Virus record (IMG/VR): IMGVR_UViG_3300042133_000008
Location: 1 to 21,054 of that record
Reading direction: 5' to 3' (one strand)
DNA from: a virus
DNA length: 21,054 nucleotides
Notes under the pieces: generated by a model
What the model saw: the letters and a program-made list of their open reading frames with translations, nothing else
Databases searched by the model: none
What the model was told of the DNA's origin: nothing
Program-made: the position numbers and the translations under genes
In this document: positions 6,691 to 12,433 of the stretch, in pieces
Layout of the letters: every line of letters starts with the position of its first letter
Position numbering within the stretch: the stretch's first letter is position 1

Positions 6691-6734
6691 GCACGGGGCC
6701 GGGGTCGCTGCATTTCCGAAAGGAGACCCCGTGC
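6691..6734 (+). promoter_or_regulatory. Inverted repeat enclosing the major capsid ribosome site and start codon
   Basis: GCACGGGG (6691-6698) is the exact inverse complement of CCCCGTGC (6727-6734), and the second arm contains the GTG start (6731-6733). The ribosome site AAAGGAG (6719-6725) lies between the arms. A competing pairing is possible between GGGGTC (6701-6706) and GACCCC (6725-6730), which would leave the start codon free but hold part of the ribosome site. The sequence is seen directly; translational control is inferred. Confidence 0.5.
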
Positions 6735-7678
6735 CTTACGACTCTCTGATCTCTCGGGACGCCAGCAACGATCCGCTGGTCCCGGAGCCGGTTTCGGCTC
6801 AGATCATCCAGGAGATGCCTGCCGCGTCCGCGCTGCTGCAGCGTGCCGCGCAGGTGCCGATGTCGACGAAGACGCAGCGGCAGCCCGTCCTCGACGTGAT
6901 GCCGATCGCCTACTTCGTGGGCGGTGACACCGGTCTGAAGCAGACGTCGGCGCAGGACTGGAAGAACGTCGACCTGATCGTGGAGGAGATCGCGTCGATC
7001 GTGCCGATCCCCGAGGCGTACCTCGACGACGCGCAGATGCCGATCTGGGACCAGGTGCGTCCGCGTCTCGTGGAGGCGATCGGTGCGAAGCTGGACGGTG
7101 CGGCACTGTTCGGCACCGACAAGCCGTCGACGTGGCCGACTGCCGTGTACCAGTCGGCGGTCGCGGCGGGCAACGTCACGATCTCCGGTACCGGCGACGA
7201 CTTCGCGCAGGACGTCGCCGTGGTCGCGGAGAAGGTCGCGCAGGACGGGTTCGCCGTGAACGGGTTCATGTCCCGGCCGGGCCTGACGTGGAAGCTGAAC
7301 GGCCTGCGTTCGGCGGACGGCATCCCGATCTACCAGCCGAACCTGCAGGGCACGCCGGGCGGCACCCTGTACGGCTACCCGATGTCGGAGCTCACCAACG
7401 GCGCCTGGGACACGTCGGAGGCGGAGCTGCTGATGGGTGACTGGCGCAAGGCGATCGTCGGCATGCGGCAGGACATCAGCTTCAAGCTGTTCACCGAGGG
7501 CGTCATCTCCGACGACGACGGCAAGGTCATCCTCAACCTGATGCAGCAGGACTCCGTCGCGATGCGCGTCGTGATGCGGGTGGCGTTCGCCACGGCCAAC
7601 CCGGCGACGCGTCTGAACAGCAACTCGGCGACCCGCTCGCCGTTCGGCGTGGTTCAGGCGACGACCGCCGCGTCCTGA
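6731..7678 (+). CDS. Major capsid protein (HK97 fold)
   Basis: A 315-residue protein, the expected shell subunit. It shows the layout of HK97-type capsid proteins of actinophages: an N-terminal arm (PLVPEPVSAQIIQEMPAAS), the E-loop region with QPVLDVMPIAYFV, the spine segment VEEIASIVPIPEAYLDD, the A-domain with KLDGAALFGTDKPSTW, and the C-terminal strands DSVAMRVVMRVAFATANP. The C-terminal tail (about 290-315) is rich in Ser and Thr. It follows the scaffold and has no fused protease. The GTG at 6731 is fixed by AAAGGAG five bases upstream. Its leader folds into a hairpin around the start, and another hairpin follows the stop, in keeping with special control of an abundant protein. It is a plausible acceptor for the downstream glycosyltransferases. 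Confidence 0.92.
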   Translation: MPYDSLISRDASNDPLVPEPVSAQIIQEMPAASALLQRAAQVPMSTKTQRQPVLDVMPIAYFVGGDTGLKQTSAQDWKNVDLIVEEIASIVPIPEAYLDDAQMPIWDQVRPRLVEAIGAKLDGAALFGTDKPSTWPTAVYQSAVAAGNVTISGTGDDFAQDVAVVAEKVAQDGFAVNGFMSRPGLTWKLNGLRSADGIPIYQPNLQGTPGGTLYGYPMSELTNGAWDTSEAELLMGDWRKAIVGMRQDISFKLFTEGVISDDDGKVILNLMQQDSVAMRVVMRVAFATANPATRLNSNSATRSPFGVVQATTAAS

Positions 7679-7684
7679 CCGAGT

Positions 7685-7719
7685 ACGGCCGGCGGCCTCC
7701 CCAGGGGGCTGTCGGCCGT
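7685..7719 (+). terminator. Hairpin after the major capsid gene
   Basis: ACGGCCG (7685-7691) pairs with CGGCCGT (7713-7719), and inside it GCCTCC can pair with GGGGGC, making a long stacked hairpin. It starts seven bases after the capsid stop and ends ten bases before the GGAG ribosome site of the glycosyltransferase gene. No T-tract follows. It is probably an attenuator or an mRNA 3' stabiliser that keeps capsid expression above that of downstream genes. Confidence 0.5.
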
Positions 7720-7738
7720 CGGTAGATCGGAGTTCCTG

Positions 7739-8752
7739 TTGCGGGTGCTGGCGATGCTGCACGCCTATCCTCCGGGCCACAATGCGGGTGCGGAGTGGGC
7801 GGCTCACAGCCTGCTGCGCGAGCTGGTGGTGCGCGGGTATGAGGTGGATGTTCTGCTGTCGGATCCTCGGTCGGCGGATGTCGGGTACGAGATCGATGGC
7901 GTGAGCGTGCACCCGTACCGGGGCAAGGCCGATCCGTCGCCGTGGATGCGCGGCGAGGGCCGTGCGCGGGTGATTGTGACGCATCTGGAGAACACGGCCC
8001 GCGCGTCGGTGCTGGGTGAGTTGAACCGGATCCCGGTGGTGCATCTGCTGCACAACACCTTCGAGAAGTCGAAGGCGTGGCTGGTGAAGGGCGCCCCGTC
8101 GCTGGTGGTGTACAACACGGCGTGGATGAAGGCGGATGCGGAGGCGTGGTGGCGGCGCAACCGCGGGGACCGTCCGATGCCGTGGGGCATCACTGTGCAC
8201 CCACCGGTTGCGGTCGCCGACTACCTGGCGTCGCCGGGGGATCGGGTCACGCTGGTCAACTTGACGGAGGAGAAGGGCGCGAAGGTCTTCTACGCGCTCG
8301 CCGAGCGTATGCCGCGCCGTAAGTTCCTTGGCGTGATCGGCGGTTACGGGGCTCAGATCGTGCGTGAGGATCTTCCGAACGTGGAGATCGTCCCGCACAC
8401 GCCGGGGGACCGCATGGCGAAGGACGTGTACGCGCGTACCCGGGTGCTCCTGGCGCCGTCGGTGTACGAGTCCTACGGGCGAGTCGCCGTCGAGGCGATG
8501 TGCTCCGGGATTCCCGTGGTCGCGCACCCGACCCCGGGCCTCATGGAATCCCTGGGGGAGGCCGGCGTTTTCGCCGACCGGGACGACTTGGACGCGTGGG
8601 AGGCCGCAGTGAAGCGCCTGTTCTCGCCGAAGGTGTACCCGCAGGCTTCGAAGGCTTCCGCAGCGCGTGCGGCGGAGCTCGATCCGGGTCCGGAGCTCGA
8701 TCTGTGGTGCCAAGCCGTGGAGGGGGTGGCTCGCCGTGGATCCCCTCGCTAG
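7739..8752 (+). CDS. GT4-like glycosyltransferase, copy 1
   Basis: A 337-residue GT-B fold enzyme of the family 4 type, which transfers a sugar from a nucleotide donor. The N-terminal domain begins with the strand RVLAMLHAYPP and the glycine-rich HNAGAEW (14-20); HLLHNTFEKS and VYNTAWM follow. The C-terminal donor domain contains TLVNLTEEKG (171-180), KFLGVIGGYG, and the diagnostic E-x7-E in YESYGRVAVEA (E244 and E252). It starts with TTG at 7739, supported by GGAG at 7729-7732 with a six-base spacer; the next start, GTG 7745, is too far from it. The end overlaps the connector gene by 17 bases. Phage-encoded glycosyltransferases of this kind are known to decorate capsid or tail proteins of mycobacteriophages. 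Its position right after the capsid gene suggests a virion target, but donor and acceptor cannot be read from the sequence. Confidence 0.87.
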   Translation: MRVLAMLHAYPPGHNAGAEWAAHSLLRELVVRGYEVDVLLSDPRSADVGYEIDGVSVHPYRGKADPSPWMRGEGRARVIVTHLENTARASVLGELNRIPVVHLLHNTFEKSKAWLVKGAPSLVVYNTAWMKADAEAWWRRNRGDRPMPWGITVHPPVAVADYLASPGDRVTLVNLTEEKGAKVFYALAERMPRRKFLGVIGGYGAQIVREDLPNVEIVPHTPGDRMAKDVYARTRVLLAPSVYESYGRVAVEAMCSGIPVVAHPTPGLMESLGEAGVFADRDDLDAWEAAVKRLFSPKVYPQASKASAARAAELDPGPELDLWCQAVEGVARRGSPR

Positions 8753-9365
8753 CCTCACCGACCTTTCGGATCGTCTTGGGCGTCCGCTCACTGTCGCCGA
8801 GGAAGCGCGGGCTTCGGCTCTGCTCGCCGACGCTTCGGCGAAGGTCCGTTCGTACACGAAGCAGAACTTCACCCGCACCGACGATGAGACCGTGGTGGTG
8901 CGGGCCCAGCAGGGGGAGATCCGGCTGCCGCAGCGCCCGGTCATCGACGTGACGGCCGTGGTGGCGATCGGCGCCGGCGGGGCCCCGGATGTGCCGGTGG
9001 TGGGCTGGCGGTGGGACGGCTTGGACATCATCCGTGTGGCGGCCGACACTTCCGTCATCAACTTGCCGGAGGACTGGTACGACGACGTTGAGGCGTATCC
9101 GGGCACCTACCGCGTCGTCTACAGCCACGGTGACGCCCAGGTGCCGGACATTGTGGTCGCCGTCGTCGCCCGGATGGCGCTGCGAACCTTGACCGCCCCG
9201 ACGATGGCGGGCGGGATCACGGGGGAGACGATCGGCCCGTACACGTACCGCACGGACGGCTCTGGTGTCGGCACGGCTGTGCTGATGACGGACGAGGATC
9301 GCCGGGAGCTTGCCGATGCCGGGTTCCGGCCGAAGGCGGGCATGTCGATGGTGAGGTACCGGTGA
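8736..9365 (+). CDS. Head-tail connector protein (gp6-like adaptor)
   Basis: A 209-residue protein in the position and style of the adaptor that docks under the portal. The N-terminal helical bundle (DLSDRLGRPLTVAEEARASALLADASAKVRSYT) is typical of gp6-like connectors. A beta-rich middle follows (VVVRAQQGEIRLPQRPVIDVTAVV, then WRWDGLDIIRV), and a helix, VPDIVVAVVARMALRTL, comes before the C-terminal tail. The start is GTG at 8736, with AGGGGG (8721-8726) nine bases upstream. It overlaps the first glycosyltransferase by 17 bases and the second by four (GTGA). It is sandwiched between the two enzymes. Confidence 0.8.
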   Translation: MDPLASLTDLSDRLGRPLTVAEEARASALLADASAKVRSYTKQNFTRTDDETVVVRAQQGEIRLPQRPVIDVTAVVAIGAGGAPDVPVVGWRWDGLDIIRVAADTSVINLPEDWYDDVEAYPGTYRVVYSHGDAQVPDIVVAVVARMALRTLTAPTMAGGITGETIGPYTYRTDGSGVGTAVLMTDEDRRELADAGFRPKAGMSMVRYR

Positions 9366-10378
9366 CGGGCGCGCTGAACGTGGTGGCCCGGGTGCACGCC
9401 TATCCGCCCGATCACAATGCGGGTGCGGAGTGGGCGCTGCATGAGATGCTGCGGGCTCTCGTCGGGCGGGGCCATGAGGTGTCGGTGTGGCTGTCGCGGC
9501 AGGCGGCGAGCCGCGAGCCGTACAGCGTGGATGGTGTGCGGGTCGTGCCGCATGCGGGCGGCGGCGATGCCCGGTTCGCTCGGGCCGTGGCCAGGGCGAG
9601 CGCGGTGGTCAGTCATCTGGAGAACGTGCCGGGCGCAGCCTGCTTGGCCCGCGGGTTCGGCAAGCCGCTGATCGTTGTATGCCACAACACGTTCGGCCTC
9701 ACGTGGCAGCCCATGCTGGAGGGGTCTTCGGCGCTGGCGGTGGTGAACTCGCAGTGGATGCTGGCGAAGGCCGAGGAAGTCTTCGACGGGCAGAGGTGTC
9801 GTCCGGATCGGATGCTGGTGGTGCGGCCTCCGGTGTGGCCGGAGGAGTACCGGGCGCCGCGCGGCGACTGCATCACGCTGGTGAACTGCACTGTGACCAA
9901 GGGTGTGCGGGTGCTGGCCGAACTCGCGGAGCGCATGCCGGAGCGGAAGTTCCTTGCGGTGAAGGGCGGCTACGGGGAGCAGGAGCCTCCGGTGCTGGAC
10001 AACGTGCTCGTGCTGGATCATCTGCCGGGGCGGGAGATGCGGGACGCGGTGTATGCGCGGACGCGTCTGCTGCTGATGCCGTCGGACTACGAGTCGTGGG
10101 GCCGGGTGGGTGTGGAGGCGATGTCCTCCGGCATCCCTGTCCTGGCGCACCCGACCGCAGGGCTCACCGAGTCTTTGGCGGGCGCGGGAATCTTCTGTGA
10201 TCGCGACGACGTGGATGCGTGGCAGGCCGAGATCGAGCGGCTCGATGACCGCGACGCGTACCAGGCGGCCTCACGGAAGGCGAGAGCCCGCTCGAAGGCC
10301 CTCGATCCGGCAGCCGATTTGGCGGCCTGGTGCGAGGCGGTCGAGGAGGTGGCTCGTGCACGAACTGCCGCACGGTGA
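9362..10378 (+). CDS. GT4-like glycosyltransferase, copy 2
   Basis: A 338-residue paralogue of the enzyme at 7739. Matching landmarks appear in the same order: ARVHAYPP, HNAGAEW (18-24), VVCHNTF, VVNSQWM, TLVNCTVTKG, KFLAVKGGYG, and E-x7-E in YESWGRVGVEA (E244, E252, the same numbering as the first copy). By eye, more than half the residues of the C-terminal half are shared, and a 24-base block is identical at DNA level (7778-7801 and 9413-9436). The N-terminal acceptor-side domain differs more, particularly after residue 45, so the two may act on different acceptors or add successive sugars. The GTG at 9362 overlaps the connector stop by four bases; the end overlaps the stopper gene by 23 bases. 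A tandem duplication around the connector gene, or two acquisitions, would explain the layout. Confidence 0.87.
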   Translation: MTGALNVVARVHAYPPDHNAGAEWALHEMLRALVGRGHEVSVWLSRQAASREPYSVDGVRVVPHAGGGDARFARAVARASAVVSHLENVPGAACLARGFGKPLIVVCHNTFGLTWQPMLEGSSALAVVNSQWMLAKAEEVFDGQRCRPDRMLVVRPPVWPEEYRAPRGDCITLVNCTVTKGVRVLAELAERMPERKFLAVKGGYGEQEPPVLDNVLVLDHLPGREMRDAVYARTRLLLMPSDYESWGRVGVEAMSSGIPVLAHPTAGLTESLAGAGIFCDRDDVDAWQAEIERLDDRDAYQAASRKARARSKALDPAADLAAWCEAVEEVARARTAAR

Positions 10379-10709
10379 CACGGTCACGATTCTGCGCCCC
10401 GGCTCGCCAAGCCGGGACGTCTACGGGAACGACGTGCCGGGCCCGCCGACGGAGATCCCCGTCCCAGGGTGTGCGGTGGCACCCCGGGACGGGACGGGCT
10501 CCGGCACGAACGAACTCACGGACGCCCGGGACACGGTCATCTCGGGCCTGATGCTGTACGCGCCCTACGGCACCGACATACGGGCCACCGACCAGATCCG
10601 CGTGGACGGGGACGTCTACACGGTGGAGGGCCGCGCGGGCAGCTTCCGGTCGCCGTTCACCGGGTCGACGGGACCGGTCGTGGTGGCGTTGGAGCGAGTG
10701 ACCGGCTAG
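10356..10709 (+). CDS. Head-tail stopper (head closure) protein
   Basis: A 117-residue, beta-rich protein. Sequence features are HGDTVTILRPGSPSRDVYGND at the start, GCAVAPRDG in the middle and DQIRVDGDVYTVEGRAG towards the end, the usual plan of small head-closure proteins of siphoviruses. The GTG at 10356 has the strong ribosome site GAGGAGGT (10343-10350) five bases upstream. It overlaps the second glycosyltransferase by 23 bases. Its TAG stop shares the tetranucleotide CTAG with the stop of the opposite-strand gene. Recognition is by composition, size and gene order rather than a unique motif. Confidence 0.7.
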   Translation: MHELPHGDTVTILRPGSPSRDVYGNDVPGPPTEIPVPGCAVAPRDGTGSGTNELTDARDTVISGLMLYAPYGTDIRATDQIRVDGDVYTVEGRAGSFRSPFTGSTGPVVVALERVTG

Positions 10710-11032
10710 TTACGGGCATGTTCGACGGCCGCCACGAGTTTCTGCGCGGCGTCGTTGCTGCTGCGGCGAATGGACAGGCTATGCGGGTCACTGAGTGGTG
10801 GGCGCCCGCCCTGCGCGAGTCCCGACTTCTCGCCTGCCGGAAGGCTGCCGGGCAGCACGAACTGCACGTAGCCGTGCATGAGGAGCGTGCCCGGCTTGAA
10901 GCGGGTTCCGGTGACGTCGGCGGCCCGGATCCGTACAGGCGCCGGCTTCGGTCCGACGGGTGTCTTGGTGATGGTCACCCACTCTCCGTCGAAGTGGATG
11001 CTGCCGAGCACTCCCTTGACCTGAATGTCCAT
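10706..11032 (-). CDS. DUF4429-like PH-fold protein on the opposite strand (candidate moron)
   Basis: A 108-residue protein and the only gene in the window on the minus strand. Its sequence fits the short DUF4429/bacterial PH-like domain found in actinobacterial SHOCT-type proteins: VKGVLGSIHFDGEWVTITK at the start, then RIRAADVTGTRFKPGTLLMHGYVQFVLPG (given here by positions 33-62), then HSLSIRRS and a C-terminal helix AAQKLVAAVEHAR. No SHOCT domain, signal peptide or membrane segment follows. Third codon positions on this strand are mostly G or C, as expected for a real gene here. The start is ATG with a weak GGGGGCGG upstream. Its stop overlaps that of the stopper gene in CTAG, and its start lies 35 bases from that of the gp10-like gene, so any promoter must lie within or just before that gene. 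Function is unknown. Independent expression, for example in lysogeny, is an inference. Confidence 0.78.
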   Translation of the reverse strand: MDIQVKGVLGSIHFDGEWVTITKTPVGPKPAPVRIRAADVTGTRFKPGTLLMHGYVQFVLPGSLPAGEKSGLAQGGRPPLSDPHSLSIRRSSNDAAQKLVAAVEHARN

Positions 11033-11845: not shown

Positions 11846-12433
11846 ATGGTCAACATCACCCGCGCAGCGGACCTGCTGGAGGTCGGTGCGAATGGCGCCG
11901 GCTGGACGGCTCCGCTCGGTACGGCGTCGCCTGGCGATCCGGAGGTGCAGCCGCTGGCGCCGTGGGCGCCGTTGGGCGCGATCTCGGACGACGGTCTGGT
12001 GCAGGGTTTCGAGGAGGACACGCAGTCGTTCACGCCGTGGGGGTATACGGCGCCGATCCGCACCACGATCACGTCGTCGCTGCGGACGTTCGGGCTGACG
12101 GTGTGGGAGGTGGGCCGGACGACGGTGCAGTCGCTGCAGTACCGGCTCGATGTCGCGGATCTGGCGCCGGTGTCGGGTCTGACGTCGTTCGCGGAGACCG
12201 CGTCTCCGGTGCCGGACCGGCGCGCGTTCTGGTTCGTCGTCCTGGACGGCGACTCCTTCCAGCGCGGCTTCTACGTCCCGGAGGGTGAGATCACGGAGCG
12301 CTCGGACGTCACACACAAGCAGGACGAGATCGCCGGCTTCGAGTGGACGATCACGGCCTACCCGGACGCGTCCGGCAACACGGTCTACCACTTCGACCGG
12401 GTGCCGGAGACCGCGGCGTACACCGGGTCCTGA
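11846..12433 (+). CDS. Major tail protein (tail tube)
   Basis: A 195-residue tail tube subunit. Typical features are NITRAADLLEVGANGAGW at the start, the conserved LAPWAPLGAISDDGLVQGFEEDT region with FTPWGYTAPIRT (about 35-72), RTFGLTVWEVGR, and the late strands DRRAFWFVVLDGDSFQRGF and GFEWTITAYPD. Length fits actinophage tube proteins without an extra Ig-like domain. ATG at 11846 is fixed by TGGAGA five bases upstream and by the start of recognisable sequence. A hairpin precedes the gene and an intrinsic terminator follows it, consistent with an abundant product. Confidence 0.88.
   Translation: MVNITRAADLLEVGANGAGWTAPLGTASPGDPEVQPLAPWAPLGAISDDGLVQGFEEDTQSFTPWGYTAPIRTTITSSLRTFGLTVWEVGRTTVQSLQYRLDVADLAPVSGLTSFAETASPVPDRRAFWFVVLDGDSFQRGFYVPEGEITERSDVTHKQDEIAGFEWTITAYPDASGNTVYHFDRVPETAAYTGS

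What the first reader, a model, noticed from the sequence alone, without database searches (positions are those of the whole stretch)
7739..10378. Two paralogous glycosyltransferases alternate with head-completion genes
Seen: the order is capsid, GT, connector, GT, stopper, with 17, 4 and 23-base overlaps. Both enzymes carry E-x7-E at residues 244 and 252 and share a 24-base identical DNA block. Known: phage GT4-type enzymes can glycosylate capsid and tail proteins in mycobacteriophages. Inference: a two-enzyme virion glycosylation module made together with its substrates. The stronger divergence of the N-terminal domains suggests two acceptors or a disaccharide. Interleaving with connectors, rather than clustering, is unusual.
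Basis: partly seen in the sequence, partly recalled or inferred. Interest (0 to 1): 0.75.

Follow-up and report, generated by a model that had tools for sequence, protein, structure and literature searches.

The report
Phage enzymes likely sugar-coating their particles
A temperate Streptomyces-type phage carries two sugar-attaching enzymes threaded between the genes that build its head; comparison of about 150 relatives suggests they attach sugars to the last residues of the head and tail-tube proteins, as reported for a few mycobacterium phages, but with an unrelated enzyme family.

Summary
In detail: capsid, GT1 (7739-8752), head-tail adaptor Ad1 (8736-9365), GT2 (9362-10378), head closure Hc1 (10356-10709), overlapping by 17, 4 and 23 bases, with E-x7-E at 244/252 in both GTs. 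The arrangement is stable: it recurs in dozens of IMG/VR contigs and Streptomyces prophages, and many relatives keep one copy at the same junctions. GT1 and GT2 belong to two old clades (AU p=1e-8 against one type A clade), and the shared 24-base block is coincidence. Both are retaining GT-B (GT4) enzymes with catalytic residues intact. Best explanation: O-glycosylation of virion proteins. New support: of GT-bearing phages, 143 of 146 distinct capsids end in Ser/Thr (124 Ser) and 118 of 121 major tail proteins in Ser; GT-less relatives mostly do not. One natural GT-less phage ends both in Ala. Che8, a mycobacteriophage reported as glycosylated, ends both in Ser. A third GT and a nucleotide-sugar epimerase lie upstream in the near-identical phage. 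Which GT modifies which protein is unresolved. New variant of a known kind; no chemistry has been shown.

The parts
6731..7678 (+). major capsid protein (HK97-type family), likely acceptor
   Evidence: PF05065 E=3.7e-27; phrog_10
7628..7675 (+). capsid C-terminal tail ATRSPFGVVQATTAAS, proposed glycosylation site (inferred)
   Evidence: Ser/Thr-ended, nearly uncharged tail in GT-bearing phages; charged or Ala-ended in GT-less relatives
7678..7723 (+). GC-rich hairpin between capsid stop and GT1 start (15 bp inner stem at 7686-7718), possible attenuator
   Evidence: fold z -3.5; a long stem at this place in the nine relatives folded, with compensatory changes
7739..8752 (+). GT1, GT4-type retaining glycosyltransferase (TTG start)
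   Evidence: PF13692 2e-14, phrog_26352 3e-103; AF2 pLDDT 95, closest folds MshA/SPS Z 33
8736..9365 (+). head-tail adaptor Ad1 (connector)
   Evidence: phrog_442 5.8e-21, phrog_2377
9362..10378 (+). GT2, second GT4-type glycosyltransferase (GTG start)
   Evidence: PF13692 2e-12, phrog_26352 2.6e-130
10356..10709 (+). head closure protein Hc1 (stopper)
   Evidence: phrog_501 5e-22
11846..12433 (+). major tail (tube) protein, second likely acceptor; ends ...ETAAYTGS
   Evidence: phrog_117 5e-38; C-terminal Ser in 118 of 121 GT-bearing relatives
12407..12430 (+). major tail protein C-terminal ETAAYTGS, proposed glycosylation site (inferred)

Best explanation
GT1 and GT2 are two soluble, probably active, phage-encoded GT4-type (GT-B, retaining) glycosyltransferases translated together with the head-completion proteins during late gene expression. 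They most likely attach sugar to Ser/Thr at the C-termini of the abundant virion proteins, the capsid and the major tail (tube) protein, before or during assembly, so that the particle carries a sugar coat. Shown here: enzyme family, intact catalytic residues, operon position, deep linkage to head genes, C-terminal Ser signature, and an upstream epimerase plus third GT in the near-identical phage. Inferred: that the reaction takes place, the sugar, the exact residue, and the division of labour. GT1 acting on the head is favoured because it co-evolves with the head module; GT2's target (tail tube, or a second sugar) is open.
For: Fold and catalysis: AF2 pLDDT 95.3; VIA Z 33 to MshA and sucrose-phosphate synthase, Z about 26 to the protein-Ser GlcNAc transferases SdgB and GtfA; H105, K179, E244, E252 invariant in 62/62. 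Position: in the 57 type A-C loci scanned the upstream neighbour of the single or first GT is a major head protein (loci with other neighbours). Ad1 directly follows the GT in 31/31 first copies, in the type B phages tested, and in 29/34 aquatic loci only ~35% identical. Second copies and L120 sit between Ad1 and Hc1. C-termini: type A-like capsids with GT end in Ser 47/51 and MTP in Ser 36/39; without GT, capsid 3/15 and MTP 0/14; type B (all with GT) capsid Ser/Thr 93/95, MTP Ser 82/82. L201 lacks the GT at exactly that junction and ends ...VLKTA / ...MGYTA. Six INPHARED phages without this GT: 1 of 12 C-termini is Ser; Che8 (reported glycosylated) ...NKTGS / ...SDGS, Muddy ...GESE / ...GEGE. 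Sugar supply: phrog_540 nucleotide-sugar epimerase plus phrog_14945 GT upstream of terL in the near-identical contig, found together in 11 of 28 GT+ records and 0 of 4 GT- records. Literature: glycans at C-termini of capsid and tail tube in mycobacteriophages (PMC12619734 citing Freeman 2023, PMC12363180, PMC11256854).
Against: No chemistry or expression evidence. The GT+/GT- contrast rests on only two well-supported independent changes, so raw p-values overstate it. Thr is the last residue of MTP in 11/14 GT-less relatives, and 3/15 GT-less capsids end in Ser. The L059/L060/L062 lineage has a GT but capsids ending in Thr and, where seen, MTP ending ...LTP. The Arg of the usual GT4 'GR...KG' donor-phosphate motif is missing, with an invariant Asn next to the gap. 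The acceptor is not identified by any direct test.
Confidence: 0.7

Rival explanations
1. Sequential enzymes: GT1 and GT2 act on the same acceptor and build a disaccharide, one adding the first sugar to Ser/Thr and the other extending it, instead of serving two different proteins. (A variant inside the best explanation.)
For: Phages with only a GT1-type or only a GT2-type enzyme still mostly have Ser at the ends of both capsid and tail protein, so one enzyme may serve both acceptors. TurkishDelight carries two GT domains fused in one protein. A third GT and an epimerase exist upstream.
Against: GT1 distances follow the head genes, while GT2 distances follow neither GT1 (rho 0.06) nor capsid (0.12); partners in one pathway might be expected to be exchanged together. 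The N-terminal acceptor domain is the most divergent part, which also fits two acceptors.
Confidence: 0.35
2. The GTs modify a host cell-surface polymer (lysogenic conversion or superinfection exclusion).
For: Many relatives are prophages of Streptomyces and kin. Related folds include teichoic-acid and lipid glycosyltransferases such as TarM and PimA.
Against: The genes overlap late head genes and are locked to that site across very distant phages. No flippase or membrane partner was seen among the ORFs scanned. The C-terminal Ser signature of virion proteins would be unexplained.
Confidence: 0.08
3. The GTs glycosylate phage DNA as a shield against restriction, as in T4-like or hypermodified phages.
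For: Phage GTs with this role exist (literature cited).
Against: No base-hypermodification gene appeared among the Pfam hits of the ORFs scanned outside the window in the 45.8 kb near-identical contig. The location is in head completion, not replication.
Confidence: 0.05
4. The acceptor is the neighbouring connector (Ad1 or Hc1) and the sugar acts in head completion.
For: The GT-Ad1 adjacency is the deepest conserved feature.
Against: Connectors are present in few copies per virion (general knowledge). The window's Ad1 and Hc1 end in ...VRYR and ...RVTG, without a Ser tail. The GT-less phage L201 keeps Ad1.
Confidence: 0.07

Closest known systems
Mycobacteriophage virion glycosylation (Che8, Corndog, Myrna; Freeman et al. 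2023, read only through citing papers PMC12619734, PMC12363180, PMC11256854)
   Same: Phage-encoded GTs; reported glycans at C-termini of capsid and tail-tube subunits. Che8 capsid and tail protein end in ...TGS and ...DGS, like the window's ...TAAS and ...YTGS.
   Different: Che8 gp108-110 are phrog_8858, phrog_1721 and phrog_854, not phrog_26352; they lie at the genome end, not among head genes; gp108 gives no meaningful profile match to the window GTs. Host is Mycobacterium, not Streptomyces and kin.
Streptomyces phage TurkishDelight gp20 (NC_073473)
   Same: Same GT family (36-43% identity), in the head-tail block between capsid and major tail protein; capsid and tail protein end in Ser.
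   Different: Two GT domains fused in one protein, not interleaved with Ad1.
PHROG 26352
   Same: Both window proteins match it (E 3e-103 and 3e-130).
   Different: Annotated 'unknown function'; no activity or context assigned there.
Retaining GT4 enzymes MshA, PimA, BshA, SdgB/GtfA
   Same: Fold and E-x7-E, Z 26-33.
   Different: About 14-20% identity; the Arg of the GR..KG phosphate motif is missing; acceptors are metabolites, lipids or Ser-rich proteins.

Membership tests
GT4-type retaining GT-B glycosyltransferase | Significant match to Pfam GT-B C-terminal domain models (PF13692/PF00534) above cut-off | tested here: met
   54.4 and 47.8 bits v 27 (PF13692); 47.2 and 44.5 v 26.4 (PF00534)
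GT4-type retaining GT-B glycosyltransferase | GT-B fold over the full length | tested here: met
   GT1: pLDDT 95.3; 319-321 residues aligned at Z 33 to MshA and SPS; GT2 not modelled, 50% identical
GT4-type retaining GT-B glycosyltransferase | E-x7-E and catalytic Lys conserved | tested here: met
   E244, E252, K179 in 62/62 sequences
GT4-type retaining GT-B glycosyltransferase | Arg of the GR..KG donor-phosphate motif (typical, from memory; not strictly defining) | tested here: not met
   HMM alignment to MshA and GlgM leaves this Arg unaligned, with Asn174 invariant in 62/62; reported as a departure, not as exclusion
GT4-type retaining GT-B glycosyltransferase | Measured retaining sugar transfer | not testable with these tools
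   needs enzyme assay
Phage virion glycosylation system | Phage-encoded GT linked to virion genes | tested here: met
Phage virion glycosylation system | Capsid and/or tail tube carry glycans at C-termini | not testable with these tools
   only the C-terminal Ser signature was tested
Phage virion glycosylation system, Che8 enzyme families | Same GT families as Che8 gp108-110 | tested here: not met
   Che8 gp108-110 fall in other PHROGs; hence 'works like', not 'is a Che8-type enzyme'
DNA glucosyltransferase (T4 type) | Hypermodified-base synthesis genes in the genome | tested here: inconclusive
   none among Pfam hits of 44 ORFs of the near-identical contig; ORF choice was not exhaustive
GT4-conflict (PF20706) | Match above cut-off over the domain | tested here: inconclusive
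   31.7 and 35.3 v 26 bits, but only about 65-112 C-terminal residues; no conflict-system partner genes seen

The most novel reading that the evidence does not exclude
A large group of temperate Streptomyces-type phages, and aquatic phages with a distant form, carry C-terminally O-glycosylated capsids and tail tubes made by a GT4 family unrelated to the Che8 enzymes. In two-GT phages one enzyme is dedicated to the head and the other to the tail, brought together by joining a head module and a tail module that each carried its own GT.
Probability: 0.3. Interest if true: 0.75.

Novelty: new variant of a known kind. Interest (0 to 1): 0.6.

Why it matters
Virion glycosylation in phages has been shown, as far as the papers read here say, for only a few mycobacteriophages. 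If this reading is right, it is widespread in temperate phages of Streptomyces and kin, arose at least twice with unrelated enzymes, and converges on the same site, the last residues of capsid and tail tube. It gives a sequence rule (GT in the head block plus Ser-ended capsid and tail protein) that predicts which phages are glycosylated and can be tested by mass spectrometry on inducible Streptomyces prophages. It also suggests a role for PHROG 26352, now 'unknown function'.

Tried and rejected
Recent in-place duplication or gene conversion: rejected by the trees and the 24-base block test. GT2 co-evolving with the tail tube: pairwise distances show only rho 0.32 with MTP, so not supported. 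Che8 enzymes as homologues: other PHROGs, no useful similarity. My first census used a wrong-frame MTP start (11803), so the MTP columns must be ignored; the correct ORF (11846-12433) was used from then on. 'GT-less' type B loci were a scripting artefact (long open frames), corrected. One search printed nothing through a column error, redone. The BFVD fold search gave only general GT matches. Records AY129335, NC_004685 and EU568876 are not held. The primary paper on mycobacteriophage glycosylation is not held. The seven GT1/GT2 group-specific positions do not point to an acceptor. The capsid model (pLDDT 77) was too weak to place the C-terminal tail.

Full report
OBSERVATION. The window is a whole virus record of 21,054 bases, with terminase, portal, MuF-like, scaffold, capsid, GT1, Ad1, GT2, Hc1, neck, tail terminator, major tail protein (MTP), chaperone, tape measure and minor tail genes on the + strand (chaperone and tape measure by position and length). 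The two proteins are 50% identical, 41% in the N-terminal and 58% in the C-terminal domain.

IS IT MORE THAN CHANCE? Yes for the arrangement, no for the 24-base block. Searching IMG/VR and GTDB genomes found the same capsid-GT1-Ad1-GT2-Hc1 order ('type A') in dozens of contigs and in prophages of Streptomyces species (L111-L116). In 20 longer records, those with this order carry exactly two members of PHROG 26352 and the others one. The 24-base block encodes the family motif HNAGAEWA. Across 25 two-GT genomes, copies from the same genome agree in it no better than copies from different genomes.

ARCHITECTURE IN RELATIVES. Type B phages (95 distinct capsids, many of them Streptomyces prophages) have a different capsid (about 27% identical), one GT2-type gene directly after it, then Ad1, Hc1 and a related tail module. 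Type C phages have a type A-like capsid (roughly 52-72%), one GT1-type gene, then Ad1. Aquatic phages with GTs only ~35% identical still have Ad1 directly after the GT in 29 of 34 loci. In L120 the GT lies between Ad1 and Hc1, and in a Nonomuraea prophage (L121) between Hc1 and the neck gene. In Streptomyces phage TurkishDelight two GT domains are fused in gp20, between capsid and MTP. The GT is therefore tied to the head-completion block but occupies different junctions in it.

HISTORY. In a 62-sequence tree the type A first copies fall with type C singles (96/94) and the type A second copies with type B singles (99/99). Forcing all type A copies into one clade is rejected (AU p=1.1e-8). Some type A second copies (L015, L020, L021, L023) nest among type B. 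Pairwise GT1 distances follow the head genes (MuF 0.82, Ad1 0.69, portal 0.64, capsid 0.60), whereas GT2 distances follow neither GT1 (0.06) nor capsid (0.12), and MTP only weakly (0.32). So this is not a recent duplication in place. GT1 is part of the head module, and GT2 is exchanged separately. Joining of two modules that each had a GT is a plausible origin (inference).

ENZYME. The AF2 model of GT1 has pLDDT 95.3. The closest folds are sucrose-phosphate synthase and MshA (Z 33), then BshA, PimA, TarM and the protein-Ser GlcNAc transferases SdgB and GtfA (Z about 26). H105, N106, K179, G180, E244 and E252 are invariant in 62 of 62 sequences, so both copies are probably active. A departure is the missing Arg of the usual GR..KG donor-phosphate motif, with Asn174 invariant next to it.

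ACCEPTOR EVIDENCE. Papers that cite Freeman et al. 2023 state that glycans sit at the C-termini of capsid and tail-tube subunits in mycobacteriophages, Che8 among the glycosylated ones. I therefore compared C-termini. The window's capsid ends ...ATTAAS and its MTP ...AAYTGS. Among type A-like capsids with a GT, 47 of 51 end in Ser (3 Thr, 1 Ala) and 36 of 39 MTPs end in Ser; without a GT, 3 of 15 and 0 of 14. In type B, 93 of 95 capsids end in Ser or Thr and 82 of 82 MTPs in Ser. The last 12 residues of type A-like capsids are 2% charged with GT and 42% without (all). L201 is a natural GT-less phage: its capsid ends ...VLKTA and is followed directly by Ad1, its MTP ends ...MGYTA, and its 24 kb contig has no PHROG 26352 match. 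Of twelve C-termini from six INPHARED phages without this GT (Muddy, ReT1v-2, FF47, JacoRen57, Eileen, Golden) one ends in Ser. Che8 ends both proteins in ...GS. Caution: only two well-supported independent GT changes underlie the contrast, so its statistical weight is small.

SUGAR SUPPLY. A near-identical phage on a 45.8 kb contig carries, on the structural strand a few kb upstream of the terminase, a phrog_14945 glycosyltransferase, a methyltransferase-like gene and a phrog_540 nucleotide-sugar epimerase whose best PDB match is GDP-L-fucose synthase. The GT and epimerase occur together in 11 of 28 GT-bearing records (types A, B and C) and in none of four GT-less ones.

EXPRESSION. A GC-rich hairpin lies between the capsid stop and GT1. 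A long stem forms at this place in the window and all nine relatives folded, with sequence changes that keep pairs. It could lower GT output relative to capsid (inference). No sigma-70-type promoter was found between capsid and Hc1.

VERDICT. Virion-protein glycosylation is the best explanation (0.7). The site at the C-terminal Ser/Thr is likely but indirect. Division of labour between GT1 and GT2 is undecided: two acceptors and a disaccharide remain open. It works like the mycobacteriophage system but is not a member of Che8's enzyme families. New variant of a known kind.

Noticed in passing
L109:14324-17077 (- strand), left of the window in the near-identical phage: Module of a third glycosyltransferase (phrog_14945), a methyltransferase-like protein and a nucleotide-sugar epimerase; GT and epimerase recur together in 11 of 28 GT-bearing records.
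   Followed up: partly
7678-7723: Strong hairpin between capsid stop and GT1, with sequence varying but a long stem kept in relatives; no T tract.
   Followed up: partly
10706-11032, - strand: DUF4429 gene on the opposite strand between Hc1 and the neck gene; the Hc1-neck spacing suggests it is absent in about half of the relatives.
   Followed up: no
849-1724: HNH endonuclease protein with zinc-finger-like CxxC pairs upstream of the terminase.
   Followed up: no
L074:4803-5363; L106:9423-10001: Aquatic phages have a ~190 aa gene without any PHROG match directly upstream of the GT, at the place of the capsid gene in other types; a possible acceptor.
   Followed up: no
L067:8743-9996: A distant GT of this family lies next to a phrog_1721 'galactosyl transferase', the family of Che8 gp109, a phage reported as glycosylated.
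   Followed up: partly
GT1 residue 174 and all homologues: The Arg of the GT4 donor-phosphate motif is missing and Asn is invariant, which may mean an unusual donor or donor binding.
   Followed up: partly
L204-L234: GT-less relatives of the capsid carry long, highly charged C-terminal extensions.
   Followed up: no
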